Shown here: one piece after another, positions 45,784 through 59,852 of the stretch
How the letters are laid out: each line of letters opens with the position of its first letter
Numbering within the stretch: position 1 is the stretch's first letter
Notes under the pieces: model-generated
What the model saw: the letters and a program-made list of their open reading frames with translations, nothing else
Database searches by the model: none
Told to the model about the DNA's origin: nothing
Program-made: the position numbers and the translations under genes
NCBI RefSeq assembly: GCF_018499875.1
Contig: NZ_JAHBAY010000013.1
Coordinates: 124,001-188,000, forward strand
Source of the DNA: Kineosporia corallincola
GTDB taxonomy: Bacteria; Actinomycetota; Actinomycetes; Actinomycetales; Kineosporiaceae
Direction of reading: 5' to 3'
DNA: 64,000 nt

Positions 45784-47202
45784 ATGCACGAAGCAGCGCG
45801 GCCTGAGCCCGGGGAGAGCGATGCGCACATGACCGACGACGCCTGGGTGAGCGTCGCCGGCGCCGGCACCGTCCGGGCCTCCGATCAGCCGCTCCGCTGG
45901 GGCCGGTTGGTCGGGGGTGTCGTGGTGCTGGCGTTGCTGGTCTTCGCCGGGGTCGCGGCGGTGAGCGCGGTCACCGCACGCCGGGCGGCCGAGCGCGAGG
46001 CGGTGAACGACGCACTGGCCATCACCGACGTGCTCGGCGAGTCGGTGATGCAGCCCGCCCTCACCGACGACCTGTCCTCCGCCGACGCCACGCGCCGGCA
46101 GGCGGCGCTGGACCAGCTCGACGTGACGGTGCGCGAGCGGCTGCTCAGCGACACGATCGTGCGGGTCAAGCTGTGGAAGCCGGACGGCACGATCGTCTAT
46201 GCCGACGAGTCCCAGCTGATCGGGATGCGTTTCGCGCTCGACGACGAGGAGATCGAAGCCCTCGACGAGCGGGTGACGAAGGCCGAGATCAGTGACCTGA
46301 GCGCCCCGGAGAACCGGTTCGAGCGCAGCAACAACCGCAAGCTCCTCGAGGTCTACCGCCCGGTGTGGGCGCCGGACGGCCAGACGCTGCTGTTCGAGAC
46401 CTACTCCGCCTACGACGCGGTGACGGCCCGGACCAGCCAGCTGTGGCGGGGTTTCGGCGGCATCACGCTGACCAGCCTGCTCCTGCTGCTGGTCGCGCAG
46501 GCCCCGCTGACCTGGGCCCTGGTGGCGCGGGTGCGCCGTGCGCAGGCCGAGCGGGAGGCCTACCTGGCCCGGGCGGTGCAGGCCTCGGACGACGAAAGGC
46601 GCCGTATCGCCGCCACTCTGCACGACGGCGCGGTGCAGGAGCTGGTGGGCAGCGCGTTCCTGGTGGCCGGCGTCGCGGACCGGGCCCGGGCGGCCGGTGA
46701 CGGCACGGCGGCACAGCAGCTCGACCTGGCGGCGGGCTCGGTGCGGTCGAGCATCGGTGGTCTGCGTTCGTTGCTGGTGGACATCTATCCGCCGTCCCTG
46801 CGCAGTGCCGGTCTGCGCGCGGCGCTGACCGATCTGGCGGCGCCGTTGCGGGCCCAGGGTGTGGGGGTGCTGGTGGAGGTGCCGGACGAGCCGGAGCTGA
46901 CGGCGGAGAAGGAGGAGCTGGTGTTCCGGGTGGCCCAGGAATGCCTGCGCAACATCATGAAACACGCGGACGCCGAGAACGTGCGGGTCGGCCTGCACGG
47001 TCCGGACGAGGAGGGGCACACGGTGCTGGAACTGGTGGACGACGGTGTCGGGTTCGATCTCGGCGCCGTGCTGGCGCGCCCCGAGGAGGGGCACTTCGGG
47101 CTGCGGCTCGTGGCCGATCAGGCGGCGGCCGCGGGGGCGGAGCTCCGGGTGCGCACCGCTCCCGGTGAGGGGACGAGCTGGCGGCTGGAGGTGCCCCGGT
47201 GA
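45784..47202 (+). CDS. Sensor histidine kinase, NarL/HisKA_3 type
   Basis: A 472-residue membrane kinase. Helix 1 (about 41-63, LVGGVVVLALLVFAGVAAVSAV), an extracytoplasmic sensor of about 160 residues (ALAITDVLGESVMQPALTDDL onward), helix 2 (ITLTSLLLLLVAQAPLTWALVARV), then the dimerisation helix with DDERRRIAATLHDG and phospho-accepting His280. The ATPase domain shows N-box CLRNIMKHA, VDDGVGFD and GHFGLRLVADQA. Signals are unknown. An ATG 15 codons on is an alternative start. The stop overlaps the response-regulator start by 4 bases. Confidence 0.93.
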   Translation: MHEAARPEPGESDAHMTDDAWVSVAGAGTVRASDQPLRWGRLVGGVVVLALLVFAGVAAVSAVTARRAAEREAVNDALAITDVLGESVMQPALTDDLSSADATRRQAALDQLDVTVRERLLSDTIVRVKLWKPDGTIVYADESQLIGMRFALDDEEIEALDERVTKAEISDLSAPENRFERSNNRKLLEVYRPVWAPDGQTLLFETYSAYDAVTARTSQLWRGFGGITLTSLLLLLVAQAPLTWALVARVRRAQAEREAYLARAVQASDDERRRIAATLHDGAVQELVGSAFLVAGVADRARAAGDGTAAQQLDLAAGSVRSSIGGLRSLLVDIYPPSLRSAGLRAALTDLAAPLRAQGVGVLVEVPDEPELTAEKEELVFRVAQECLRNIMKHADAENVRVGLHGPDEEGHTVLELVDDGVGFDLGAVLARPEEGHFGLRLVADQAAAAGAELRVRTAPGEGTSWRLEVPR

Positions 47203-47834
47203 GCGACCGGATCCGGGTGCTGCTGGTGGACGACCACGCGCTGGTGCGGGCCGGGCTGACCGCTCTGCTCGACGCCCATCCACGGATCGAGGTGGTGGGG
47301 GAGGCCGCGGACGGCGACCAGGCCGTGGAGCTGACCGAGAACGCCGAGCCCGACGTGGTTCTCATGGATCTGTCGATGCCGGGCACCGACGGGGTGACGG
47401 CGACCCGGGAACTGCTGGTGCGGCGTCCGGGAACCCAGGTTCTGGTGCTCACCTCGTTCTCCGACCGGAACCGGGTGCGGGACGCCCTGGCAGCGGGTGC
47501 GATCGGCTACCTGCTCAAGGACTCCGACCCGCAGGACGTGGTGAACGGGGTGATCGCGGCGGCCCGGCAGGGCTCGCCGCTCGACCCCCGGATCGCCCGG
47601 ACCCTGCTGACCGAGGGCACGGTCGGCCCGCCGCCCGCACTGCCCCCGCTGTCGCCGCGGGAGCTGGACGTGCTCCGGCTGGTGGCGCGGGGGATGGCGA
47701 ACAAGCAGATCGGCCGTGCCCTCGGGATCAGCGAACGGACCGTGAAGGTGCACCTGGGCAACGTGTTCCGGCGGATCGGCGTGCAGGACCGCACCTCCGC
47801 AGCACTCTGGGCCCGGGAGAACCTCCAGCAGTGA
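47199..47834 (+). CDS. NarL/FixJ-type response regulator
   Basis: A 211-residue regulator. The receiver begins IRVLLVDDHALVRAGLTALL with phospho-acceptor Asp57 (DVVLMDLSMPG) and conserved Thr/Lys downstream (LTSF, LLKD). The C-terminal LuxR-type HTH is LSPRELDVLRLVARGMANKQIGRALGIS. It is the partner of the preceding kinase. Its stop at 47834 abuts the convergent exchanger stop with no intervening base. Confidence 0.96.
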   Translation: MSDRIRVLLVDDHALVRAGLTALLDAHPRIEVVGEAADGDQAVELTENAEPDVVLMDLSMPGTDGVTATRELLVRRPGTQVLVLTSFSDRNRVRDALAAGAIGYLLKDSDPQDVVNGVIAAARQGSPLDPRIARTLLTEGTVGPPPALPPLSPRELDVLRLVARGMANKQIGRALGISERTVKVHLGNVFRRIGVQDRTSAALWARENLQQ

Positions 47835-49073
47835 TCACCGCCTGCGGGTGAAGGGTGCCCTCAGGGTGGGGACGATGTGCTTCCAGTGCCAGGCGAAGGC
47901 GGCCAGGGCGATGACGCCGTACACCGCGGACAGGATCAGCCGGCCCTGGGTGCCGGTGACCGGGAACTGAATCATGAACAGCAGCAGCAGGATCCAGGCC
48001 GACCAGTGGTGGAACCGCAGGCCGATGATCAGCGCGATGCCCATCATCGTCTGCGTCGCGGTCAGCAGCATCTCCTCGGTCTGCCGGTGGTCGAGGGCCA
48101 GGGCCGGGTCGCCGCCGCCGAACAGGTAGGCGATCGGCAGCGAGCCGACCAGGAGCGTCCACTGGTTCACCTTGGACGAGATCAGCGTCGCGATCGCGGC
48201 CCCGGCGTTGCCGCGCCAGGCGAACATGATCGCGATGATGAACTCCGGTGCCTCGGAGGCCAGCGGGGCCACCCACTGCACCAGCAGGAATTCGTCCACG
48301 CCCAGCGACGCGCCGCCCTCGACCAGGCTGTGGGCGAACGGTTCCGCGGCGATCATCACCACGAACGCGGCGAACAGGAACAGCCCGGCCAGGGTCCAGC
48401 GGCGCGGGCTCCTGGCCAGGCCGCCGATCGCCGCCGAGGTGCCCTGGAGGTGCGGCTCCTCCACCGCGCCCCGGCTGAGCCGGTAGGCGTAGTAGGCGAA
48501 CCAGGCGAACAGGATCACGCCCATCCACAGGTGGATCTGGCCGGTGAGCGGCATGACGAACGCGAAGACGCCGGCGAACAGCAGGAACCCGAGTTCGAGC
48601 CGGTTGTCGCGGTCGAGCGGGATGGCGTGCGTGGTGCGGCCTTTCAGTCGCCGCAGGCCCCACAGCCCGACCAGCACCACGACCGGCCAGCCGAGCCCGA
48701 GCAGCAGCCGGTTGGAGCCGGTCATGTTGGCGGCGGCGTACTGCACGTACTCCGGATTGCTGCCGGCCGTGTAGGCGTAGTACAGGTCGACCGCGTACTC
48801 CGGGAGTACCGCGATCAGGGCCAGGATGGCGATGGCCAGCCCGCCGGAGATGTCGACCTGCGCCGCCTCGGCGGCCCAGGCCAGCAGGAACGACGCGGCG
48901 AACACCGCGACGCCGTAGATCAGCATCGACAGCACCGGCTCCGGATGTGTTCCGGACAGCCGGGTGACGACGGCGGGAAGGGCGAGGAGCACGCAGAGCC
49001 CGATGGAACGCAGCATCAGCGCGCGGGGACTGCGTGGCGTGGGTGGTGCGGCGGCTTCGGTGGTGGTGGTCAC
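47835..49073 (-). CDS. Sodium/calcium or proton-cation exchanger (CaCA superfamily)
   Basis: A 412-residue integral membrane protein with about 11 helices and the two inverted alpha repeats of the superfamily: LALIAVLPEYAVDLYYAY and VAPLASEAPEFIIAIMFAW, each with the ion-binding Pro-Glu. It exchanges a divalent cation for protons or sodium. The start at 49073 is followed by a Thr/Ala/Pro-rich N-terminus. About 295 bases separate it from the peptidase gene; nothing was seen there. Confidence 0.88.
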   Translation of the reverse strand: MTTTTEAAAPPTPRSPRALMLRSIGLCVLLALPAVVTRLSGTHPEPVLSMLIYGVAVFAASFLLAWAAEAAQVDISGGLAIAILALIAVLPEYAVDLYYAYTAGSNPEYVQYAAANMTGSNRLLLGLGWPVVVLVGLWGLRRLKGRTTHAIPLDRDNRLELGFLLFAGVFAFVMPLTGQIHLWMGVILFAWFAYYAYRLSRGAVEEPHLQGTSAAIGGLARSPRRWTLAGLFLFAAFVVMIAAEPFAHSLVEGGASLGVDEFLLVQWVAPLASEAPEFIIAIMFAWRGNAGAAIATLISSKVNQWTLLVGSLPIAYLFGGGDPALALDHRQTEEMLLTATQTMMGIALIIGLRFHHWSAWILLLLFMIQFPVTGTQGRLILSAVYGVIALAAFAWHWKHIVPTLRAPFTRRR

Positions 49074-49368
49074 GGCGGGACGGCTCCCTCGGTCGGTTCC
49101 GGCCGGGTCGCCGTGGTGCCAGGGGCGGAGCAGACCCGGCCAGCAGACGGACGTGCTGGCCGAAGGTCTGGCTCGCCGTCACCCCGCAGCTGCCCGCGGA
49201 CGACGGTGGATGACCGTGCGCCGCACGCTGACTGCGCGGCGGGCGCCGTGATGTCGACCATCCGCACCTGCCCAGCACCGGCGAGGGCAGGCGGAGTTAC
49301 TCCCCTTCTGACCAACCAGGCTAACCGACGGGCCGGCCCCTGTCGTCGTCAGGCGCCGTGCCGCGAGC

Positions 49369-51249
49369 TCACACCGGTGGGTGGCTGACCTCCAGATGCT
49401 CGCAGACCCAGTCGACGGCGGTACGTACGAAGGTCACCCGGTTCGCCGTGTCGAGCAGCTCGTGCCCCTCCCCCGGGAACAGCAGGAACTGGTGCCGCAC
49501 ATCGTTTTTCGCCAGAGACTCGACCACCTGCTCGGCCTCCTCCAGTGGCACGTTGGTGTCGTCGGCGCCGTGCACCACCAGCAACGGGGCCCTCAGCCGG
49601 TCGATCCGGCGGATCGGTGAGAACTCGCGCAGCAGCCCGGCGTGGGCGGCCGGGTCGCCGTACTTGGACACCGCGGCCGCGGCGATCCACGGCTCGGTGT
49701 GCCGGTAGAAGGTCTCCAGGTCGGCCATCCCGCACACGTCGATGCCGACCGCGAACAGCTGCGGGAACCAGGTCAGGCCGGCCAGGGTCAGGTAGCCGCC
49801 GTACGACCGGCCCATCAGCCCGACCCGGCCGGGCACCGAGACCCCGCTCTCCAGAAGGTGTTCCGCGGCCGCGGAGACGTCCTGGATCGAGCCGTCGCGC
49901 AGCTCCACGTCGTCCGCGGTCTCGAAGGCCCGCCCGAAACCCGAGGAACCGCGCACATTCGGCGCGAACACCGCGACCCCGGCCGACACCAGCGACTGGA
50001 ACAGGGAGTTGTACACCGGGCGTTCCTGCGACTCCGGCCCGCCGTGCAGGTGGATCATCGTCGGCCAGGGGGCGGGCGAGTCGGGGCGGTAGAGCCAGCC
50101 GCTCAGCGGCAGGCCGTCCAGCCCGCGAAAGCGCCGCAGCACCGGCCGGGTCAGGTCGGCGGTGTCGACCGTGGCGTAGCTGGCGCCCCGGGAACCGCGC
50201 AGCTCACCGTCGGCCTTGCTGGTCAGCGGCAGCGTGGTGCCGGTGACCAGGTCGATGGTCCAGGCGCCGCGCGGGTCCGACCAGTCCTCCGCCGCGAGGA
50301 TCAGCGACTTGCCCCCGGCGAGGAGCTGGCAGTCGTCCACCACGTCACGTGGCAGCGGGCCGATCTCGTCCTGCTTCAGCGAGTCCAGGTCGAGCAGGCT
50401 CACCGCGCTGGTGCCGCCGTACTCGTTCCACAGCAGCACGGCCGTGGCGCCGTCTGCCGACAGGGAAAAGCGTTGCAGCTCGGCGTGATCCCGGCGGGCC
50501 AGCAGCTCGGCCGGGCCGTCGCCGGACAGGTCCAGGCGGACCAGCGCGGCCAGGTCGTGGTCGGCCTCGGTGCGGGCGTACAGGTGCCGGCCGTCGGGTG
50601 AGAGCGCCCCCAGATCGGCGAAGCCGCCGCGCTCGCCGGTCACCGAGGTGTGCACCGCCCGCTCGTCCGACCCGTCGAGCGCGCAGACCGCCAGCGTGCG
50701 GTAGCTGCGCGGGCCGCGCCGGATCAGCGCCCGGTCACCGGCCACGTCGAGCAGCGACACCAGCGGCCCGGAGGTGATCACCGTGCGGGTGCCGTCGGCG
50801 GGCGAGATCAGCACGGCGGACGCCACGGCCCCCACGGTCTCGGTGACCATGAGCTGTCCTTGGGCCGTCCACCCGTGCCGGGACCCCGCCCCCAGCCAGG
50901 CGGTCCGCCCCGGGCCACCGGACACCAGACGCAGGCCGGAACCGTCCGGGCGGACCACCCAGATCTCGTCGCGCGAGCTGCCCGCGCCCGCCACCAGGCA
51001 GGCCAGCCAGGCCCCGTCGGGCGACCAGCTGATCGACAGCACCCGGGCCAGCGAGATGCCCGGGCTGACCGGCTGGGTCTGCTGCGAGTGCAGGTCTTTC
51101 ACCCAGATCGAGGGCGCCCCGCCACGGTCGGAGATGAAGGCGATCCGCGTGCCGTGCGGGTCGGGCGTGGGTGACCAGCTGCCGTAGACGTCCTCGGGTA
51201 CGGCCTCGCCGGCCTGGTCGTCGTGCCCGAAGGATTCCTGGACGTTCAC
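49369..51249 (-). CDS. S9-family serine oligopeptidase (third gene of the ligase-amidotransferase operon)
   Basis: A 626-residue prolyl-oligopeptidase-type enzyme. A beta-propeller (about residues 1-370; WSPTPDPHGTRIAFISDRGG, LSPDGRHLYARTEAD) caps an alpha/beta-hydrolase domain. The nucleophile is Ser482 in GLMGRSYGGYLTLAG; Asp is in VVHGADDTNVPL and His in PGEGHELLD. There is no signal peptide, so it is cytoplasmic and limited to short peptides. Its GTG start overlaps the amidotransferase stop by 4 bases (GTGA), forcing coordinated expression. In this setting it could trim, recycle or regulate the peptide product. Confidence 0.93.
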   Translation of the reverse strand: MNVQESFGHDDQAGEAVPEDVYGSWSPTPDPHGTRIAFISDRGGAPSIWVKDLHSQQTQPVSPGISLARVLSISWSPDGAWLACLVAGAGSSRDEIWVVRPDGSGLRLVSGGPGRTAWLGAGSRHGWTAQGQLMVTETVGAVASAVLISPADGTRTVITSGPLVSLLDVAGDRALIRRGPRSYRTLAVCALDGSDERAVHTSVTGERGGFADLGALSPDGRHLYARTEADHDLAALVRLDLSGDGPAELLARRDHAELQRFSLSADGATAVLLWNEYGGTSAVSLLDLDSLKQDEIGPLPRDVVDDCQLLAGGKSLILAAEDWSDPRGAWTIDLVTGTTLPLTSKADGELRGSRGASYATVDTADLTRPVLRRFRGLDGLPLSGWLYRPDSPAPWPTMIHLHGGPESQERPVYNSLFQSLVSAGVAVFAPNVRGSSGFGRAFETADDVELRDGSIQDVSAAAEHLLESGVSVPGRVGLMGRSYGGYLTLAGLTWFPQLFAVGIDVCGMADLETFYRHTEPWIAAAAVSKYGDPAAHAGLLREFSPIRRIDRLRAPLLVVHGADDTNVPLEEAEQVVESLAKNDVRHQFLLFPGEGHELLDTANRVTFVRTAVDWVCEHLEVSHPPV

Positions 51250-53018
51250 AGACCGGTCCGCTGGAGCCAGAGCTCGAGCAGGCCGAGCTGCCACAGCACG
51301 TTCGCGCCGATCGTGGTGCGGGCCGTGTTGGGGTCGCCGAGCAGGCCGTTCACCACCTCCGGCCGGAACAGTGCCCGGTCCAGCGCGGCCCGCGAAGTCA
51401 GTGCCTCGCGCACGCTTTCGAGGATGGGGCCGTCGAGATGACGCACCCCGGGCACCGGGAAGTAGCCCTTGGTGCGGTCGATGACGGCGTCCGGCACGAC
51501 GCCCCGGGCCGCCTCCTTGAGCACGCCCTTGCCACCGTGCGCGAGCTTGAGTCCGGGTGGGCAGAGCGCAGCGAGTTCCACGAGTTCATGGTCGAGGAAC
51601 GGGACGCGCGCCTCCAGCCCCCACGCCATCGTCATGTTGTCGACCCGCTTCACCGGGTCGTCCACCAGCATGATCCGGCTGTCGATGCGCAGCGCCGCGT
51701 CGAGGGTGCTCTCGGCGCCCGGGGCGGCGAAGTGGTCGCGGACGAACGCCAGGCTCGGGTCGCCGTCCACCGTGCGGTCCGGGTTCAGCAGGGCGGCCAC
51801 ACCCGACGACGGCCGGTCGAAGAACACCCCGGCGTAGGCCTCGGCGGCCTGCGAACGGGGGACGTCGCGCAGCGGCGGGTACCAGTCGTACCCGGCGAAC
51901 ACCTCGTCGGCGCCCTGCCCGGACTGCACCACCGTGATCTTCTTCGAGACCTCCTCGGAGAGCAGGTAGAAGGCCACGCAGTCGTGGCTGACCATCGGCT
52001 CGCTCATCGCCGCGATCGCGCCCTCCACGCCGTGGGCCAGCCGGTCGTCGGGGATCAGGATCTTGTGGTGATCGGTGCCGAACTCCTTGGCCACCAGGTC
52101 GGAGTACTCGAACTCGTCGCCGATCTCGCCGCCCGCGGCGTTGAACCCGATGCTGAACGTGGCCAGTCCCTGCTGCCCGGCCCGGGCCAGCAGCGCCACC
52201 ACCAGGCTGGAGTCGAGACCGCCGGACAGCAGCACGCCCACCGGGACGTCCGACACCATGCGCCGCTGCACGGCCAGGTCGAGCGCGGCGAGGGTCCTCT
52301 CCCGCCACTCGTCGTCCCCGATCGAAAGATCGTGCGTGGCGGGGGGATTCCAGTACACCGCCTCGGTGGACGAGCCGTCGGGCTCGATCACCCGCACGGT
52401 GGCCGGCGGCAGCTTGCGCACCCCGGACAGGATGGTGCGCGGCGCCGGCACCACCGAGTGCCAGGACAGGTAGTGGTGCAGCGCGACCGGGTCGATCGAG
52501 GTGTCCACGTCGCCCGCCGCCAGCAGGGCGGGCAGCGTGGAGGCGAACCGGATGCGCCGCGGGGTCTCGCTCAGGTACAGCGGCTTGATACCGAGCCGGT
52601 CACGGGCCATCACCACCCGGCCGGTGTCCAGCTCGGTCAGCACGATCGCGAACATGCCGAGGAAGTGGTCGACGAAGGACGTGCCCCAGTGGTGGTACGC
52701 CTTGAGGATCACCTCGGTGTCGGACGTGGAACGGAACCGGTAGCCGTGGCCCTCCAGCTCGCGCCGCAGCTCGTGGTGGTTGTACACGCAGCCGTTGAAG
52801 ATCATGGCCAGGCGCAGTTCGTCGTCTACCATCGGCTGCGACCCGGCCTCGGAGAGGTCGATGATCTTCAGCCGATGGTGCACGAACGCCACCGGCCCGT
52901 GCGACCAGGTCCCCTTCGAGTCCGGCCCCCGGCGCTCCAGGCACGGTGACATCCTGGCCACCGCGTCGAGATCGGGTTTCGCACCGTCCAGCCGGAACTC
53001 GCCACCCAAGCCGCACAT
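51246..53018 (-). CDS. Glutamine-dependent asparagine-synthetase-like amidotransferase
   Basis: A 590-residue two-domain enzyme. The N-terminal glutaminase has catalytic Cys2 (MCGLGGEFRLDG), LERRGPDSKGTW and HHRLKIIDLS. The synthetase half has the ATP-pyrophosphatase loop VLLSGGLDSSLV and GQGADEVFAGYDWYP. The text is closer to the N-acetylglutaminylglutamine amidotransferase branch (AsnO of rhizobia and Pseudomonas) than to ordinary AsnB. It would convert a carboxylate to an amide on a small peptide or acid, using glutamine. AGGAGG precedes the ATG; 82 bases after the ligase gene and overlapping the peptidase gene. Ordinary asparagine synthesis is the alternative. Confidence 0.88.
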   Translation of the reverse strand: MCGLGGEFRLDGAKPDLDAVARMSPCLERRGPDSKGTWSHGPVAFVHHRLKIIDLSEAGSQPMVDDELRLAMIFNGCVYNHHELRRELEGHGYRFRSTSDTEVILKAYHHWGTSFVDHFLGMFAIVLTELDTGRVVMARDRLGIKPLYLSETPRRIRFASTLPALLAAGDVDTSIDPVALHHYLSWHSVVPAPRTILSGVRKLPPATVRVIEPDGSSTEAVYWNPPATHDLSIGDDEWRERTLAALDLAVQRRMVSDVPVGVLLSGGLDSSLVVALLARAGQQGLATFSIGFNAAGGEIGDEFEYSDLVAKEFGTDHHKILIPDDRLAHGVEGAIAAMSEPMVSHDCVAFYLLSEEVSKKITVVQSGQGADEVFAGYDWYPPLRDVPRSQAAEAYAGVFFDRPSSGVAALLNPDRTVDGDPSLAFVRDHFAAPGAESTLDAALRIDSRIMLVDDPVKRVDNMTMAWGLEARVPFLDHELVELAALCPPGLKLAHGGKGVLKEAARGVVPDAVIDRTKGYFPVPGVRHLDGPILESVREALTSRAALDRALFRPEVVNGLLGDPNTARTTIGANVLWQLGLLELWLQRTGL

Positions 53019-53100
53019 GCACAGACCTCCTGAAGCTAGCCGGACCTCACGTCCCCGTAGACCGAGTTGACCACGACTCCCCGGGGAGTGCGCAACCCGA

Positions 53101-55659
53101 CTAGGCCAGCAGCCAGGTGTCTTTCGAGCCGCCCCCGCGCGAGCTGTTCACCACCATGCTCCCGGCCGGGGCCACCCGGGTCAGGGCCGTGGGGGCCACC
53201 CGCAGCTCGTCGGTGCCCGAGTTCAGCACGAAGGCCCGCAGGTCCACGTGGTGCGCCGTGAGCTGATCATCGGTGAAGCAGGGCATGGTCGACAGCTGCA
53301 CCATGTCCTGGGCGATCCAGCGGTGCGGTGCGGTCTTCAGCTGCTTGCGGTGCGCCTCGATCTCCTGCTCGGAGGCCAGCGGCCCGATCAGCACACCCTC
53401 ACCGCCGTAGCCGTCCACCGGCTTCAGCACCAGCTGCTCGATCCGGTCCAGCACCTGCGCGGCCTGGTCCGGCAGCCCGCACAGGAACGTCGGAACGCTG
53501 TTCAGCAGCGGCTTCTCGTTCAGGTAGTACTCGATCATCTGCGGCACGAAGGCGTACACGGCCTTGTCGTCGCCCACCCCGTTGCCCGGGGCGTTGGCCA
53601 GCACCACCCGGGCCGCACCGACCGCGGACAGCAGCGAGGGCCCGATCGGCCGGCCGTCCGCGCCCGAGGAGTGCAGCAGCGCTTCCTCGTCGACCCGCAG
53701 GTAGAGCACGTCCACCCGGGTGCGGCCACCCTCCCGCAGCAGGTACACGGTGTCGTTCTCGACCAGCAGGTCGCTGATCACGGCCACCGGCACACCCATC
53801 TCGTTGGCCAGCATGCGGTGCTCGAACCAGGGCGAGCTCTCCGGGCCGTCGCTGAGCAGCACCACCTGCGGGGTGTCGGGGGCACTCGGCAGCGCCGCCG
53901 ACTGCAACGTCTCCAGCAGCATCGACGGCACCACGTCCGGGTCGAGCATGCGCGCCGGGCGCGGCAGGTCGCCCATCACCGCGTCGCTCAGCCGCCGGTT
54001 CTGCACCGAGTAGCCCAGGCCGGAGGGGGCCCGCAGATTGTCTTCCAGGATCAGCCACTCGCCGGTGACCGAGTCCTTCACCAGGTCCATGCCGCTGATG
54101 TGGGCGCGCACCTTCTGCCGGTGCACCAGTGCCCCGGTGCCGCGCAGGCCGGGGGCCGACTCGACCACCCAGGCCGGCACCACGCCGTCTTTCAGCACCG
54201 CGCGCTCGCCGTAGATGTCGTGCAGGAACAGGTCGAGGGCCGCTGCCCGCTGCCGCAGGCCCAGGCTGAGCCTGGACCACTCGTCGGCCTGCACCACGCG
54301 GGGCAGCAGGTCGACCGGGAACAGCCGGGCGCTGGCCCGGCCCGGCACGCCGAAGGTGACGCCGTTGGAGCGCTGCTCCTCGTCGCGCCGCCGCTCCCGC
54401 TGCCGCATACCGGCCGGGCCGAGCTCCTCGAGCACCCGGAACATGCCCTCGTAGGCCGGCGTGGGGCCGTTCTCGGCCAGCGCCTCGTCGCCGGGCTCCC
54501 GGTACAGCGGCAGGGCCAGGGGGTGCCCGGCCTCACCCGGCACGGTCGGCGCGGCCTGGTCCGGGTCGGTGCGGCGCACCAGCATGTCGACCACGTCGGC
54601 GAACCGCTCGCGGCGCTCGTACACGGTGCGCTGCTCGGCCGCGGAACTGCCTCGTACCAGGGCGCGTTCGGCCAGCTCGGTGACCCGGTCCCAGTCGCCG
54701 GCCTCCTCCAGCTGCGGGCGCAGGTCGTCGAGCAGCTGGTGCACGGCCTGCGCGGCCGGCACCGGGCGCGAGGAGCGTGGCAGGTCGAGCAGGTCGCCCT
54801 CCAGGCCGGAGCGGGCCGCCCGCCACAGCGCGCTGCGCAGCAGGGGCGAGGGCCAGCGCCGGGCCGGTTCGCCGGCGGTGATCGCGGCGGCCTCCTGGCG
54901 CACCATCGCCCGGAACAGCCCGGCCAGCAGCACCACCGTGTCCAGGTCGGGACAGGCGTCGGTGAGCCGCAGTTCGAGCGTGGGCAGGTGCGAGGAGGGG
55001 CGCACATCGAAGTAGATCATCCCGGCGTCGCTGATCGTGCCGGAGTCGACCAGGTCGGCGATCAGCTGGTCGTGCTCGGCTGCGGAGTTCACCTCGCCGC
55101 TCAGGCCGGCGGTGGGCCAGCGCGACCAGAGCAGCGACCGGTTGCTCGCGTAGCCCGAGTCCTCGCCCATCCAGAACGGGGAGGACGCCGAAAGAGCCAG
55201 CAGCACGGGAAGTCTCGGGGTGACCCGCTGCGCGATGCGGACGGCCAGGTCACGGTCGGAGACCTGCACGTGCACCTGCGCGCCACAGATCAGCTGCTCG
55301 CGCACCAGCGTCTGGTACTCGTCGAGCATGTGCTCGTAGCGCCGGTTCGGCGTCACCGACAGCTGGAGCGGGTCGACCAGCGGCACGGTGCCCGCGGCCA
55401 CCACGCCCAGCCCCATCGGGGTGGCCACCTCGACCAGCCGCCGGCGGGTGTTCACCAGGGCCTGGCGCAGGTCGTCCAGGGTGTTGCAGACCGGGGTGTT
55501 GCTCTCGACCACGCTGCGCTGGAGCTCGTCGGAGTAGGTGTCGTCGGGCAGGTGCTCCAGCAGCTTGGGGGCCTGGGCCACCAGCTCGCGGGACAGCAGG
55601 TCCACGACGTGGAACTCTTCTTCGACTCCGAGGCTGGTCAGTTCGCCGGGACCGGTCAC
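53101..55659 (-). CDS. Carboxylate-amine ligase (YbdK/GCS2) fused to circularly permuted type 2 ATP-grasp ligase
   Basis: An 852-residue fusion. Residues 1 to about 365 are a glutamate-cysteine-ligase-2-like YbdK domain (SLGVEEEFHVVDL, GAQVHVQVSDRDLAVRIAQR, PTLELRLTDACPDLDTVV). From about 390 the chain is a circularly permuted ATP-grasp: GRASARLFPVDLLPRVVQ, GLRQRAAALDLFLHDIYGE, VKDSVTGEWLILEDNLRAPSG, VLKPVDGYGGEGVLIGP, ending SRGGGSKDTWLL. Both halves activate a carboxylate with ATP and join it to an amine, so one protein could make two successive peptide or amide bonds. The usual partners of this ATP-grasp (alpha-E and transglutaminase-like genes) are absent. The GTG at 55659 has GAGGTGG upstream; longer frames add Arg-rich nonsense. 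First gene of the operon. Confidence 0.9.
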   Translation of the reverse strand: MTGPGELTSLGVEEEFHVVDLLSRELVAQAPKLLEHLPDDTYSDELQRSVVESNTPVCNTLDDLRQALVNTRRRLVEVATPMGLGVVAAGTVPLVDPLQLSVTPNRRYEHMLDEYQTLVREQLICGAQVHVQVSDRDLAVRIAQRVTPRLPVLLALSASSPFWMGEDSGYASNRSLLWSRWPTAGLSGEVNSAAEHDQLIADLVDSGTISDAGMIYFDVRPSSHLPTLELRLTDACPDLDTVVLLAGLFRAMVRQEAAAITAGEPARRWPSPLLRSALWRAARSGLEGDLLDLPRSSRPVPAAQAVHQLLDDLRPQLEEAGDWDRVTELAERALVRGSSAAEQRTVYERRERFADVVDMLVRRTDPDQAAPTVPGEAGHPLALPLYREPGDEALAENGPTPAYEGMFRVLEELGPAGMRQRERRRDEEQRSNGVTFGVPGRASARLFPVDLLPRVVQADEWSRLSLGLRQRAAALDLFLHDIYGERAVLKDGVVPAWVVESAPGLRGTGALVHRQKVRAHISGMDLVKDSVTGEWLILEDNLRAPSGLGYSVQNRRLSDAVMGDLPRPARMLDPDVVPSMLLETLQSAALPSAPDTPQVVLLSDGPESSPWFEHRMLANEMGVPVAVISDLLVENDTVYLLREGGRTRVDVLYLRVDEEALLHSSGADGRPIGPSLLSAVGAARVVLANAPGNGVGDDKAVYAFVPQMIEYYLNEKPLLNSVPTFLCGLPDQAAQVLDRIEQLVLKPVDGYGGEGVLIGPLASEQEIEAHRKQLKTAPHRWIAQDMVQLSTMPCFTDDQLTAHHVDLRAFVLNSGTDELRVAPTALTRVAPAGSMVVNSSRGGGSKDTWLLA

Positions 55660-55817
55660 GTCTGGTCGCCACCTCGCACATCGGGCTGCACCACCGTGAC
55701 GGACGACGCGGCGGTGGGCGAACGGGCGCGCTGTTTGCGTCCGGCTCACCGTCAATCGACCTTAAGGCCGATGCGTGACCTGCACATTTCGACAGGGTTG
55801 CGGCGTGCTGTGCGGGC

Positions 55818-55870
55818 AAAATGGTGGACGACGAGGAGCTCGGTCAAAGCTCCCCGTCGTCCACAATTTT
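55818..55870. terminator. Bidirectional hairpin terminator
   Basis: The stem GTGGACGACGAGGAGCT (55824-55840) pairs with 55848-55864, with one mismatch and a 7-base loop, and is flanked by AAAAT and AATTTT. It ends the upstream minus-strand gene (stop at 55876) and lies about 160 bases before the ligase-operon start. Confidence 0.88.
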
Positions 55871-55875
55871 CGGTT

Positions 55876-57099
55876 CTATCCGGCGGTGTGCTCCCGGTGG
55901 CCGGTCGGCCGGCCCTGGTCGTCGCGGCCGCTGCTGGCCCGCAGGATCGCCTCCGGGGTGATCTCCTCGTCCGGCGCGAGCCGGGGCAGCGGCAGGATCG
56001 GGTCCTCGTGGTCGAGGTGGTCGATGGTCTTGAGCCGGGCCAGGTTCTCCCGGGCCAGGTCGCTGTGCCGCTGCTCGACGGCCCGGTCGGGGCGCACCAC
56101 CAGGGTGGACTCGCGCATCGCCTCGGGCGGCGAGTCGTCGCCCGGCAGGCGCAGCCCGAGATACGACGAGCGACGCTGGTCGTAACCGTCGGCGAGGGCG
56201 AAACCCTGGTACTGCCAGTCCAGTTCGTCGGCGATCGCGGAGACCAGGGCGGCCTCCAGCACCGAGCGGTCGCGCAGCCGGGGCAGGTGCGGCAGCGAGG
56301 TGTACAGCTCCCAGAGCTCGCCCAGGCTGACGTGCCCGGCCCGCCAGGCGCTGGTCAGCGGGCCGTCCAGGTCGCGGCGGATCGCGTGGTCGTCGCTCGC
56401 GGTGACCAGCTCGCCCTCCGCCCGCAGGGTGAGGGCGGCGCGCTCGGCCAGGTTGGTCCCGACGCCCTCGGCGGTGAGTACCCGCAGTCGCTGAGGCCCG
56501 TTCTCGGTGTCCTGCACCGGCACCAGCAGCCAGAAGTAGGTGTCGGGCAGCAGGTGGGCGATGTCCTGCTCGGCCGCGTCCCGCCAGGTCGCGGCCTCGG
56601 CCGCCGCCTCTTCGGGCAGGCCCAGGGCGTGGGCCATCGTGCCGACGTGCGACCAGGCCAGGAACTCCCGCACGCTCGACTCGAGCATCGGGTAGTGGTG
56701 GGCGTCCGGGGCCAGAGCGATCACCGCGTTGCGGTGCAGGCGGGGCCGGCGGCCGGCCGAGGAGGCGAGGCGCAGGGTGAACTCGGCGGCGGGCGAGGTG
56801 GCGACCGGATCGGCCAGCGAACCGTGCACGTCGGCCGGGTCGTGCAGGTGGCGCGGGTGCAGCACGGCCAGCTGTACCTCTGCCTCGTCGGGCAGGCCGC
56901 CGGTGGACTCGACCACGTGCACCGAGCCGAACCCGTCCTCGCCGGAACCGCCGGTGACGCCGGGCTGCTCCAGTCGCCGCACGATCTCCGCCTGGATCCG
57001 GTCGGCGCCCAGATGGTCGGCGAACTCGTGTGCGGCGCGGTCCATCTCGGCCATCGGGTCGTGCCGGGCCTTGCGCGCGAGGTGGGGCATGGGGGACAT
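55876..57099 (-). CDS. Protein of unknown function, 407 residues
   Basis: I do not recognise a family. It is soluble, acidic, with no signal or membrane helix. Features: HLARKARHDPMAEMDRAAHEFADHLGADRIQ at the start, VHVVESTGGLPDEAEVQLAVLHPRHLHDPADVHG, FLAWSHVGTMAHALGLPEEAAAEAATW in the middle, then ELWELYTSLPHLPRLRDRSVLEAALVSAIADELDWQYQGFALADGYD, and a Pro/Asp-rich end. AAGGAGCG lies about 5 bases before the ATG at 57099; an ATG three codons later is possible. Same strand as, but separated by a terminator from, the ligase operon; divergent from a PASTA lipoprotein. Confidence 0.65.
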   Translation of the reverse strand: MSPMPHLARKARHDPMAEMDRAAHEFADHLGADRIQAEIVRRLEQPGVTGGSGEDGFGSVHVVESTGGLPDEAEVQLAVLHPRHLHDPADVHGSLADPVATSPAAEFTLRLASSAGRRPRLHRNAVIALAPDAHHYPMLESSVREFLAWSHVGTMAHALGLPEEAAAEAATWRDAAEQDIAHLLPDTYFWLLVPVQDTENGPQRLRVLTAEGVGTNLAERAALTLRAEGELVTASDDHAIRRDLDGPLTSAWRAGHVSLGELWELYTSLPHLPRLRDRSVLEAALVSAIADELDWQYQGFALADGYDQRRSSYLGLRLPGDDSPPEAMRESTLVVRPDRAVEQRHSDLARENLARLKTIDHLDHEDPILPLPRLAPDEEITPEAILRASSGRDDQGRPTGHREHTAG

Positions 57100-57256
57100 C
57101 GGACGCTCCTTCTCTGCCGCCGGTGCCCATGATCTCGGCACGGCGAGCCATCGGCTTGAGCGGCCGGGAGGGCGAGTCGTTGTCCGGTTCGTCATGGTTT
57201 CCCCGGACCGGGGGATGACGTACCGTCGCTGGAGAGGCATGGAAGGGGGACTTCGC

Positions 57257-57760
57257 ATGAAGGCGATCGCGGTGGCGGTGCTCGGTCTCTTGCTGCTGGC
57301 CGGGTGCGCGAGCGGGGCGCAGGTCGGGTCCATCGACTCCGGGGAGAACCCGGCCGCCGAACCGGCCGCCGTGTCCACCCGCAGCCAGGCCGACATCGAC
57401 GAGAAGCGGGCGCAGGAGCGTGAGGACGACCCGCGCACCGCCGAGGAGGAGCGCCGCGACGAGGCCCGCGAGGCCGCCGAGCAGGTCAAGAAGATCGCCG
57501 GAGACATCCGCAAGGGCATCACCGAGGCGCACTTCACCATGCCCGACGTGGTCGGCGGCAACCTCCAGCAGGCGCAGGACGAGCTCCAGTCGCGCGGCAG
57601 CTACCTGCTCGACCAGGTCGACGCCACCAGCCAGCACCGTTTCCAGCTGCTCGACTCGGACTGGAAGGTCTGCCACCAGTCACCCGCGGCGGGCACCCGC
57701 ACGCTCAAGACCAGCCTGGTACGGCTGGAGGCGGTCAAGCTCGACGAGAACTGCCCGTAG
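57257..57760 (+). CDS. Lipoprotein with a single PASTA-like domain
   Basis: A 167-residue exported protein. MKAIAVAVLGLLLLAGCAS gives lipobox LAGC (Cys17). A charged Glu/Asp/Arg helical linker (about residues 45-90, EKRAQEREDDPRTAEEERRDEAREAAEQ) may form a coiled coil. The C-terminal FTMPDVVGGNLQQAQDELQSRGSYLLDQVDAT, WKVCHQSPAAGTRT is a PASTA fold as used to bind peptidoglycan. GGAAGGGGG lies before the ATG. It converges on the next gene with two bases between stops. Confidence 0.85.
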   Translation: MKAIAVAVLGLLLLAGCASGAQVGSIDSGENPAAEPAAVSTRSQADIDEKRAQEREDDPRTAEEERRDEAREAAEQVKKIAGDIRKGITEAHFTMPDVVGGNLQQAQDELQSRGSYLLDQVDATSQHRFQLLDSDWKVCHQSPAAGTRTLKTSLVRLEAVKLDENCP

Positions 57761-57762
57761 GG

Positions 57763-58704
57763 TCAGCACTCCTCGTAGTGGTAGTCGTCCGCGGTCTTCG
57801 GCAGGATCGTCGGGTCGCGGTAGATCACCGAGATCCGATCGCCGCGGGCGTCGCAGGCCGTGTTCCAGTTGGCCGAGCCGTTGTCGGTGTACTCGATCTC
57901 GAACCAGCGGTCGCCGTAAGCCTGGTCGTAGAGCCCGCATTCGTCGTACACCTGGCACGACTCCACCACCGCGAAGTCGAAGCCGATCGCCTTGCGGGTT
58001 GCGCGGCTCAGCTCACCGGCGTTCTTCTGGGCGATCGCCAGGCCCTTCGAGTGTGCCCGGCCGGCCAGCAGTTTCGCCAGCGCCAGGTTGTCGGCCCGGC
58101 GCAGTTCGGCCGGGAAACGGGTCCAGGTGTCCAGGTTGTCGGGGTCCACGGCCTGATAGCCCCTGGCCGCACAGTCGTCGATCCAGGCGTACTCGATCCG
58201 GGCGATCGCGGCCCGCTTGTTCTTCGTCGAGGTGTCGAGGATGTACTCGCCCGGCCAGTTCGCGTCTTCGAGCGGCTTGCCGTCGGCGTCTTTCAGCAGC
58301 AGGGCGCGCCGCGCCCGGGTGGCGGTCCAGAACGACTTCTCGTAGTCCTGGGTCTGGAAACCGTTGATGTAGCAGATTGAGTAGACGCCCTTGACCGGGT
58401 CCTCGGAGCGGTCCCGGTCGATGGTCCGGACCCCGGCGCCGGGCCGGTACCCGCCGGCCAGCTGGATGTCGACCTTCCCGTTCAGCGGCGGCAGGGTGTA
58501 GCCCTTGCCGCTGACCTCAATGGTGGACGACGGGGAGCTCGTGACCGGTCCGGCATCCGCCGAGGGCTGGGTGCCGGCCTGGTTGGCGGCCTGCGCGCTG
58601 GTGTCGGCCTGGGCTCCGGCCTGTGAGGTGCCGCCCGTGGCGCCGACGATGCCGCCGGCGAGCACGAGGGCGGCGCCGGCACCGACTGCGGTGAGACGAA
58701 CCAC
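57763..58704 (-). CDS. Secreted GH114-like (endo-alpha-1,4-polygalactosaminidase family) protein
   Basis: A 313-residue exported protein. The N-terminal [25 protein letters not shown] is a signal peptide or anchor, then an Ala/Gln/Thr/Ser linker. The catalytic-like region [66 protein letters not shown] and [14 protein letters not shown] matches the GH114/TM1410 family, which cleaves galactosamine-rich polymers or related glycans. The frame stays open upstream through the 9-bp repeat as Arg-Gln-Ala repeats, but the GTG at 58704 with GAGG upstream gives a sensible signal. Confidence 0.82.
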
Positions 58705-58756
58705 GGGCGAGACCTCATCCTGACGAAGTCGGCGAACCTGGGGGACCCGGCGGGCC

Positions 58757-58920
58757 TGGCGGGCTTGACGGGCTTGACGGGCTTGGCGGGCTTGGCGGGC
58801 TTGGCGGGCTTGACGGGCTTGACGGGCTTGACGGGCTTGACGGGCTTGACGGGCTTGACGGGCTTGGCGGGCTTGACGGGCTTGACGGGCTTGACGGGCT
58901 TGACGGGCCCGGAGGGCTTG
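58757..58920. repeat. 9-bp tandem repeat, 16 good units
   Basis: The unit is CGGGCTTGR (R alternates between A and G) in 16 unbroken copies with degenerate copies on each side. It lies 50-215 bases upstream of the GH114-like start on the minus strand. Near-perfect units imply recent expansion. Confidence 0.92.
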
Positions 58921-59030
58921 ACAGGCCCGGCGGACCTGACGGCGGGCCGGATCGAGCTGCCGGTCGCCGGGACGAAGATCAAGTGAAGCCGGGACGGGGC
59001 GGTTCACCCGGGCGTACCCCTGCGGGCCAT

Positions 59031-59200
59031 GCCCTTCGCCGGGTCGTGTCCTTCGTGGAGCCTTGCCGCCCGCGGGGTTGTGCTGCGCGCGGGGTTGTGC
59101 CGCTCGCGGAGCCATGCCGCTCGCGGAGCCATGCCGCTCGCGGAGCCATGCCGCCCGCGGGGTTGTGTCGCTCGCGGGGTTGTGCCGCTCGCGGAGCGGG
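59031..59200. repeat. 17-bp tandem repeat, ten units
   Basis: Ten exact-length units starting at 59031 and every 17 bases to 59184. Units 5-7 are identical (GCCGCTCGCGGAGCCAT); others alternate GAGCCAT with GGGTTGT ends. Each unit has a small GCTC/GAGC dyad. The array ends one base before the stop codon of the secreted-protein gene at 59202. Confidence 0.9.
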
Positions 59201-59201
59201 A

Positions 59202-59852
59202 TCAGCGGGTGACGGTGCCCGAGGTCTTCGCGCCGGTGGTGGAGCTGCCTGCCCAGACTGCCTTCCAGCGGTGCTTCCCCAGCGCCACCGTGGACGAGAA
59301 GGTGCCCTTCGACGAGGTTTTCACCGTCTTCGCGGTTACCCACTCACCCTTGCCGTTGAGGTACCTGATGCTCACGGACTGGCCGGCCATCGTCTGCCAC
59401 TGCTTCGAGCCGGTGCCGAAGTTCACCCGGCTCAGGGTGCCCGAGACCTTCCGGTTCTTGCCCGACTTCTTCACCGAAAGACTGAGCGAGGAAGCTCGTT
59501 TCAGGGTGAAGGAGGAGGAGCAGCTGTCGACCGTGTCACCGTTCTGCCGCTTCACCTTGACCGCGAAAGCACCGGCGTCGCGGTTGGCGAAGCGTTGGGG
59601 GCTGAAGGTGGCCACGGTGTCCGACCCGTCGGCGACGTCGTACACGTACAGGTTGATGTCGCTGATCTGGAGCGTCCAGTACTTCGCCGACGGCACGTCG
59701 AAGTCGACGTTCTTGGAGCGGGTGCCCAGGGTGACGCTGCCCGGCGAGACCCGGCACGTCGCCGCCTGGGCCGGGGTGGCGTTCAGCACCAGCGTCAGCG
59801 GCACCGCGAAGGCGGCGAGACGGGCCGTGGTGCCACGGAAGGTGATCGTCAT
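59202..59852 (-). CDS. Secreted beta-rich protein, paralogue A
   Basis: A 216-residue exported protein. MTITFRGTTARLAAFAVPLTLVLNATPAQAA is a signal peptide with a likely AQA cut. The mature part has two Cys (ATCRVSP and DSCSSSF) that could pair, then LKRASSLSLSVKKSG, GTLSRVNFGTGSKQWQTMAGQSVSIRYLNGKGEW and HRWKAVWAG. It looks like two beta-sandwich (Ig-like) units. It aligns with its upstream neighbour over the C-terminal half. No known family. The ribosome site is weak. Confidence 0.78.
   Translation of the reverse strand: MTITFRGTTARLAAFAVPLTLVLNATPAQAATCRVSPGSVTLGTRSKNVDFDVPSAKYWTLQISDINLYVYDVADGSDTVATFSPQRFANRDAGAFAVKVKRQNGDTVDSCSSSFTLKRASSLSLSVKKSGKNRKVSGTLSRVNFGTGSKQWQTMAGQSVSIRYLNGKGEWVTAKTVKTSSKGTFSSTVALGKHRWKAVWAGSSTTGAKTSGTVTR

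What the first reader, a model, noticed from the sequence alone, without database searches (positions are those of the whole stretch)
49369..55659. Three-gene operon of dual peptide ligase, amidotransferase and oligopeptidase: candidate new small-peptide system
Seen: three minus-strand genes in order, 82 bases then a 4-base overlap apart, encoding a YbdK/GCS2 domain fused to a circularly permuted ATP-grasp, an AsnO-like glutamine amidotransferase with Cys2 and the SGGLDS loop, and an S9 oligopeptidase with Ser482. Known: the N-acetylglutaminylglutamine-amide osmolyte is made by a GNAT/ATP-grasp fusion plus an AsnO amidotransferase, and its clusters often carry an M42 peptidase. Inference: the same logic is met here with a different ligase pair and a different peptidase, so the product could be an unknown amidated di- or tripeptide used in osmotic or stress protection. 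The usual ATP-grasp partners (alpha-E, transglutaminase-like) are missing, which argues against the common role of that domain.
Basis: partly seen in the sequence, partly recalled or inferred. Interest (0 to 1): 0.88.

Follow-up and report, generated by a model that had tools for sequence, protein, structure and literature searches.

The report
Glutathione-like operon for amidated peptides
Many actinobacteria share a small set of neighbouring genes that looks built to join two or three amino acids much as cells build glutathione, cap the end with an amide and later break the product down; databases name one of the genes after a known salt-protection compound, but the partner gene needed for that compound is missing from this genome, so the real product is unknown.

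Summary
The three genes are real and in the stated order: a GCS2/YbdK–circularly permuted ATP-grasp fusion (FUS), a glutamine amidotransferase (AMT) and an S9 peptidase, in a Kineosporia genome. AMT scores as TIGR03104, the N-acetylglutaminylglutamine-amide (NAGGN) amidotransferase (919.5 bits, cut-off 570.1), far above AsnB models; yet the genome has no Ngg (TIGR03103) over cut-off. In 394 class genomes, 106 carry AMT: 49 have it directly upstream of Ngg, 50 within 1 kb downstream of a FUS-type ligase (36 fused, 14 GCS2 alone), 7 other. AMT phylogeny follows ligase type: two AMTs of one genome, one per ligase, are not sisters (AU p = 3e-63). Operon GCS2 domains form one clade apart from own-genome YbdK paralogues. 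By fold, FUS mirrors the glutathione pathway, like GshF. Best reading: synthesis and turnover of an amidated gamma-glutamyl di- or tripeptide, perhaps a compatible solute. Product and role are untested. Against obligatory amidation: 8 of the 41 FUS genomes found lack AMT. FUS and Ngg do coexist in 9 genomes of the order sample.

The parts
53101..55659 (-). FUS: GCS2/YbdK-type carboxylate-amine ligase fused to a circularly permuted ATP-grasp; frame open from 55755
   Evidence: model and fold matches
54802..55632 (-). GCS2 domain of FUS (residues 42-318 of the 884-aa frame); GxExE (43-47), His162, Arg252, Glu261 and Arg263 kept; residues typical of the operon clade: His49, Gln154, Gln160, Trp210
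   Evidence: (197.5 bits)
53170..54303 (-). CP_ATPgrasp_2 domain of FUS (residues 485-862) with conserved LEDN, GG and NS..GGG.KDTW residues
   Evidence: (407.2 bits)
53019..53100 (-). 82-base gap between FUS and AMT with a ribosome-binding-site-like AGGAGGT
51246..53018 (-). AMT: class II glutamine amidotransferase of family TIGR03104
49369..51249 (-). S9 peptidase; GTG start overlaps the AMT stop by 4 bases; frame open from 51294

Best explanation
The operon makes and turns over a small peptide amide. The GCS2 domain activates the gamma-carboxylate of glutamate and joins it to a first amino acid; the fused circularly permuted ATP-grasp then adds a second amino acid to the carboxyl end, as GshF does in one chain for glutathione; AMT transfers glutamine-derived ammonia to the C-terminal carboxylate, most likely of a glutamine residue, because its conserved core is that of the NAGGN amidotransferase; the S9 peptidase hydrolyses the product when it is no longer needed. 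In lineages with GCS2 alone the product would be the dipeptide amide. A gamma-glutamyl cap plus a C-terminal amide masks both ends of the inner residue, the design of the known glutamine-amide solutes, so a compatible solute or stress metabolite is the likeliest use. Shown here: gene order, conservation, families, kept catalytic motifs, and AMT tracking its ligase. Inferred: substrates, order of steps, product and role.
Against: No metabolite, expression or assay data. 8 of the 41 FUS genomes have no AMT match at E <= 1e-20: four hold FUS-S9 pairs and four FUS without S9 beside it, so amidation is not obligatory. AMT-S9 occurs without an adjacent ligase (L122, L127, L145). In the free AMT tree the three Streptomyces GCS2-linked AMTs and L145 lie outside both main groups; they join the FUS-type set only in the held tree, which is not rejected. 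The FUS model is of middling confidence (pLDDT 71.5, pTM 0.54). The gamma linkage and the glutamine acceptor rest on family resemblance alone. FUS and Ngg coexist in 9 genomes of the order sample, so they are not strict alternatives.
Confidence: 0.5

Rival explanations
1. The operon makes ordinary NAGGN: FUS has replaced Ngg and the annotation is right.
For: AMT is in the NAGGN amidotransferase family and its conserved core hardly differs; no AMT genome of the class sample was found with both FUS and Ngg.
Against: FUS has no acetyltransferase domain; G120 and G014 keep both ligases, each with its own AMT in a separate group of the tree; the peptidase is S9, whereas an M42 gene lies by Ngg.
Confidence: 0.15
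2. The product is a thiol, a glutathione-amide-like peptide (gamma-Glu-Cys-X amide) for redox defence.
For: FUS has the glutathione-pathway order of folds; a reference title seen in PMC2588565 gives YbdK gamma-glutamyl:cysteine ligase activity. Glutathione amide of purple sulfur bacteria is recalled and comes from no call.
Against: AMT is closest to an enzyme whose acceptor ends in glutamine, not glycine (passages of PMC8070244); the operon GCS2 clade has its own residues beside conserved motifs.
Confidence: 0.15
3. The ligase and AMT modify a protein or ribosomal peptide, as pupylation does, rather than making a free metabolite.
For: PafA and Dop share the fold of the GCS2 half; predicted peptide-tagging roles of the permuted ATP-grasp family are recalled.
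Against: No conserved extra neighbour across several genera was seen among the 30 largest clusters of nearby genes of 80 aa or more; AMT belongs to a free-dipeptide family. Shorter open frames were not examined.
Confidence: 0.07
4. AMT is the cell's asparagine synthetase and the grouping is incidental.
For: It is the only full-length Asn_synthase domain found in G000; a second match covers 73 of 354 positions. TIGR01536 scores over its own cut-off.
Against: Much higher score for TIGR03104, E to Q in the SGEG motif, and the conserved gene set.
Confidence: 0.03

Closest known systems
NAGGN operon (asnO-ngg-peptidase)
   Same: Same amidotransferase family; a two-domain ligase protein, an amidotransferase and a peptidase together; PA3459-PA3461 described in PMC8070244 (passages)
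   Different: GCS2 + permuted ATP-grasp in place of GNAT + ATP-grasp; S9 in place of M42; AMT downstream of its ligase, whereas AMT is directly upstream of Ngg in 49 of 49 class genomes; AMT in another group of the tree
GshF (bifunctional glutathione synthetase; 3ln7, 3ln6)
   Same: Glutamate-cysteine-ligase fold followed by an ATP-grasp ligase in one chain (the ATP-grasp half of GshF is recalled)
   Different: GCS2 type and circularly permuted ATP-grasp; an amidotransferase and an S9 peptidase follow; the second look aligned 3ln7 and 3ln6 over the ligase half only (model 1-369)
YbdK (TIGR02050)
   Same: 284.6 bits over a cut-off of 176.4; conserved residues kept
   Different: Operon members form a separate clade with own residues such as His49, Gln154, Gln160, Trp210 and Phe249
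Circularly permuted ATP-grasp family (3n6x); alpha-E/transglutaminase partners recalled
   Different: Fused to GCS2; no alpha-E or transglutaminase domain in the window proteins scanned

Membership tests
NAGGN biosynthesis operon | TIGR03104 amidotransferase | tested here: met
   919.5 bits, cut-off 570.1
NAGGN biosynthesis operon | Ngg, the TIGR03103 GNAT/ATP-grasp protein | tested here: not met
   No match over cut-off in G000 or in the four other same-genus genomes; best E in G000 1.4e-5
NAGGN biosynthesis operon | M42 peptidase in the operon | tested here: not met
   The third gene is Peptidase_S9. An M42 gene lies near Ngg in L063; its homologues within 6 kb were clustered in L063, L069, L071, L074, L075, L138 and L142, none a FUS-AMT-S9 locus
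NAGGN biosynthesis operon | Product is NAGGN, raised under salt | not testable with these tools
   No metabolite or expression data
TIGR03104 amidotransferase | Score over the curated cut-off, N-terminal Cys2, SGGxDSS loop | tested here: met
Asparagine synthetase B | AsnB as best-fitting family, with the SGEG motif | tested here: not met
   TIGR01536 415.0 is over its cut-off of 267.1 but far below TIGR03104; PRK09431 269.2 is under its cut-off of 499; SGQG in place of SGEG
Asparagine synthetase B | Makes asparagine | not testable with these tools
   Needs complementation or an assay
YbdK / GCS2 carboxylate-amine ligase | TIGR02050 over cut-off, GxExE and other conserved residues | tested here: met
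   284.6 bits, cut-off 176.4; residues
GshF | Glutamate-cysteine-ligase fold plus ATP-grasp in one chain | tested here: met
GshF | GCS1-type ligase and non-permuted ATP-grasp (recalled) | tested here: not met
   Pfam gives GCS2 and circularly permuted ATP-grasp
GshF | Makes glutathione | not testable with these tools
   Needs an assay
Permuted ATP-grasp / alpha-E / transglutaminase system | alpha-E and transglutaminase-like partners beside the ATP-grasp (recalled) | tested here: not met
   None reported in the ten window proteins scanned; the rest of the genome was not searched for them

The most novel reading that the evidence does not exclude
A second, widespread class of amidated gamma-glutamyl peptides, assembled the way glutathione is and capped like an osmolyte, exists in actinobacteria; about half of the TIGR03104 genes of this class, which the family model names NAGGN amidotransferase, serve it instead of NAGGN.
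Probability: 0.4. Interest if true: 0.75.

Novelty: new variant of a known kind. Interest (0 to 1): 0.62.

Why it matters
In this class sample half of the TIGR03104 genes sit by a different ligase from Ngg and would be misnamed if the reading is right; a Streptomyces fungicidicus plasmid, for one, carries the GCS2-AMT-hydrolase set with AMT annotated as N-acetylglutaminylglutamine amidotransferase. Papers count NAGGN clusters in actinobacteria such as Micromonospora from genome mining (PMC11537254, PMC12915310, passages); those may be the classical kind and were not checked. If the product is a new peptide amide, it adds a solute or stress metabolite to large genera and gives two poorly understood ligase families a testable joint task in one enzyme.

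Tried and rejected
AsnB reading: rejected on family scores and motif. A larger conserved neighbourhood: among 797 called genes within 6 kb of the core, the 30 largest clusters printed show none that links Kineosporia with more than one other locus beyond the core genes; the 561-aa gene, the Na/Ca exchanger and the two-component genes are Kineosporia-level neighbours, save weak regulator matches. Another enzyme in place of AMT in FUS-S9 loci: nothing lies between FUS and S9 in L111-L114. AMT missed by the search in FUS genomes without it: a direct protein search found none at E <= 1e-20 in 8 of 8. Strict mutual exclusion of FUS and Ngg: 0 of the AMT genomes of the class sample hold both as scored and one genome without AMT does (G209), but 9 of the 17 FUS genomes in the order set hold both. 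Whether Ngg genomes tend to lack the FUS operon's own AMT cannot be tested here, because that order set was picked for having AMT. Promoter scan of 49000-56000: 0 found, 0.1 expected. GshF rows of the second look covered the ligase half only. Prior description: the listed parts (lists capped at 15-30 rows) show no title on this gene set; Sagot 2010 and a 2009 amidoligase survey by Iyer and others (both recalled; the first also cited in PMC8070244) are not held, so a mention there cannot be excluded. The Frankia proteome paper PMC5768760 (passages) ties two proteins that rise under PEG to NAGGN; their gene context was not checked. Papers seen as passages only: PMC8070244, PMC2588565, PMC12915310, PMC11537254, PMC1224877, PMC7824335, PMC5768760, PMC10252897; all others as listings.

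Rows dropped before counts: L091 and L093 (same contigs as L056 and L059); L144; loci fetched after (L158-L173) are in no tree and not in the type counts, and L158 matches L092 in contig length; L146, a copy of the window's AMT, stays in the AMT tree. AMT rows were taken only if one tblastn piece spanned nearly the whole protein, so L084 (two pieces) and L089 (contig end) are absent; stretches with stops were skipped. L067, L145 and L146 were left out; L067, L095, one L097 row and L004 out of the groups. undercounts FUS: five more fusions next to AMT turned up on fetching (G201, G243, G253, G331, G447), so 41 of 394 is a lower bound. G324 keeps only an ATP-grasp fragment beside AMT. The phylum search (6 of 396) scored two candidates per genome and is not used as a rate.

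Full report
Observation. Three minus-strand genes stand as described: FUS, 82 bases, AMT, 4-base overlap, S9. Pfam and NCBIfam give GCS2 plus CP_ATPgrasp_2, a TIGR03104 amidotransferase at 919.5 bits (cut-off 570.1) and a Peptidase_S9. The best solved structures by sequence are 3n6x and YbdK for FUS, 7ylz and AsnB for AMT, and 5l8s, an amino acyl peptidase, for S9. The genome belongs to Kineosporia: same-genus handles G065 and G121 share contig lengths with records of K. mesophila and K. babensis.

Conservation. A protein scan of genome contigs returned 35 loci, 18 of them matching over the whole fusion. tblastn shows FUS-AMT-S9 in Kineosporia, Actinoplanes, Paractinoplanes, Jidongwangia, a Nocardioidaceae MAG, two Mycobacterium MAGs, Smaragdicoccus and a Nitriliruptorales MAG. 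Among the loci typed, which were picked because they matched, there were 28 FUS-AMT-S9, 10 GCS2-AMT-S9, 9 FUS-S9, 5 FUS alone, 2 FUS-AMT (L089 ends inside AMT), 3 AMT-S9, 1 ATP-grasp fragment with AMT-S9, 1 with classical and new operons in tandem (L061, G120), 1 AMT-GCS2 whose GCS2 is of the general kind (L067), 8 AMT-Ngg, 3 Ngg alone and other singles. Annotated examples: in Streptomyces fungicidicus plasmid p1 the genes read glutamate--cysteine ligase, N-acetylglutaminylglutamine amidotransferase, alpha/beta fold hydrolase; in Streptomyces sp. NBC_01001 the amidotransferase is followed by a prolyl oligopeptidase family peptidase with no ligase before it.

Class sample. The same 394 genomes were searched for FUS (41 at E <= 1e-150), TIGR03104 (106 at E <= 1e-170) and TIGR03103 (52). 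FUS and AMT co-occur in 33 (Fisher p = 4e-14; genomes are related, so this overstates independence). In 31 of those 33 AMT lies downstream of FUS on the same strand within 1 kb; in 2 it is on another contig. Ngg has AMT directly upstream in 49 of the 49 genomes that hold both; 3 Ngg genomes have no AMT over cut-off. The remaining 24 AMT genomes were all looked at: 5 further fusions, each one open frame, 14 GCS2-only neighbours, 1 ATP-grasp fragment, 2 AMT-S9 and 2 with none. So 50 of 106 sit after a FUS-type ligase, 49 before Ngg and 7 are other.

Evolution. In the AMT tree (62 rows: 4 outgroup, one duplicate) the labels need few changes (FUS 3, shuffled mean 21.0; Ngg 2, shuffled mean 8.5). 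G120 holds classical and new operons side by side and its two AMTs are not sisters (AU p = 3e-63); the two of G014 also part. The main groups have SH-aLRT 86 (40 FUS-type rows) and 94 (14 rows with Ngg and unlinked AMTs and L067); three Streptomyces GCS2-linked AMTs and L145 lie outside both in the free tree. Holding all 44 FUS-, GCS2- and S9-linked rows together, L067 apart, gives a slightly better tree than the free search found (p 0.684). Only 2 columns separate 42 FUS-type AMTs from 9 Ngg-linked ones at the thresholds used, while 162 are invariant, which argues for a similar acceptor. In the GCS2 tree (73 rows) the operon domains form one clade at 99 that also holds two Rhodococcus copies; own-genome paralogues L002, L003 and L004 and the L067 domain fall outside; fused and solo forms interleave. 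Seven of seven GCS2-AMT-S9 genomes searched (G163, G165, G231, G289, G387, G424, G426), and G309 with AMT-S9, show no match to the ATP-grasp half at E <= 1e-20; the other 8 of the 16 genomes in that search do. In the seven genomes that hold the operon S9, it scores far above any paralogue; of the three FUS-only genomes searched, two show paralogues alone and one nothing.

Mechanism. Operon GCS2 keeps residues conserved in YbdK and adds its own beside them (54 operon and 15 other rows). The ATP-grasp keeps the residues shared with stand-alone relatives (45 fused and 3 stand-alone rows). The FUS model (pLDDT 71.5, pTM 0.54) gives YbdK and plant glutamate-cysteine ligase for the first half, and 3n6x, glutathione synthetases and glutathionylspermidine synthetase for the second. 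This is the order of the glutathione pathway and the plan of GshF. With an amidotransferase of the NAGGN family behind it, the simplest product is a gamma-glutamyl peptide amide. [quoted passage not shown] For NAGGN, Ngg acetylates one glutamine and joins it to a second, and AsnO amidates (PMC8070244, passages).

Against. AMT is missing from eight FUS genomes on direct search, four with FUS-S9 and four with FUS but no S9 beside it. In G802 (L160) S9 follows FUS directly, where three genomes of the same genus have AMT between; the rest of G802 was not searched for AMT. Nine genomes of the order set hold both FUS and Ngg. No data bear on product, regulation or phenotype.

Verdict. The gene set is real and common in actinobacteria, and by the tests made it is not the NAGGN operon. 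Its chemistry is inferred.

Noticed in passing
window 57763-59343, repeats 58751-58926: A GH114-family glycoside hydrolase (Pfam 161.2 bits) with a 9-base tandem repeat of 19.6 copies in its N-terminal part; a 17-base repeat of 7.7 copies lies at 59064-59194.
   Followed up: partly
L136 (G209), L134 (G452), L135 (G467): Ngg (TIGR03103) genomes without a TIGR03104 gene over cut-off; a direct search gave nothing in G209 and only distant 35-36% matches in G452 and G467.
   Followed up: partly
window 55876-57561: A 561-aa gene upstream of FUS with no Pfam or NCBIfam match, found by tblastn only in Kineosporia loci among those examined.
   Followed up: no
window 45784-47834 and 47835-49073: A two-component kinase and regulator and a Na/Ca exchanger family protein lie next to the operon here and in several Kineosporia loci.
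   Followed up: no
L095 8001-9128, L097 9557-10399: Rhodococcus loci with a GCS2 of the operon clade but no AMT or S9 found beside it.
   Followed up: no
L060 (G121), L141 (G329), L068 (G041), L138 (G490): TIGR03104 genes with no known ligase beside them on their strand; they fall on the Ngg-linked side of the AMT tree. L138 is a short contig, so its neighbours may be cut off.
   Followed up: no
window 51246-53018: AMT is the only full-length Asn_synthase domain found in the genome G000, so asparagine is presumably made another way, or AMT has a second role.
   Followed up: no
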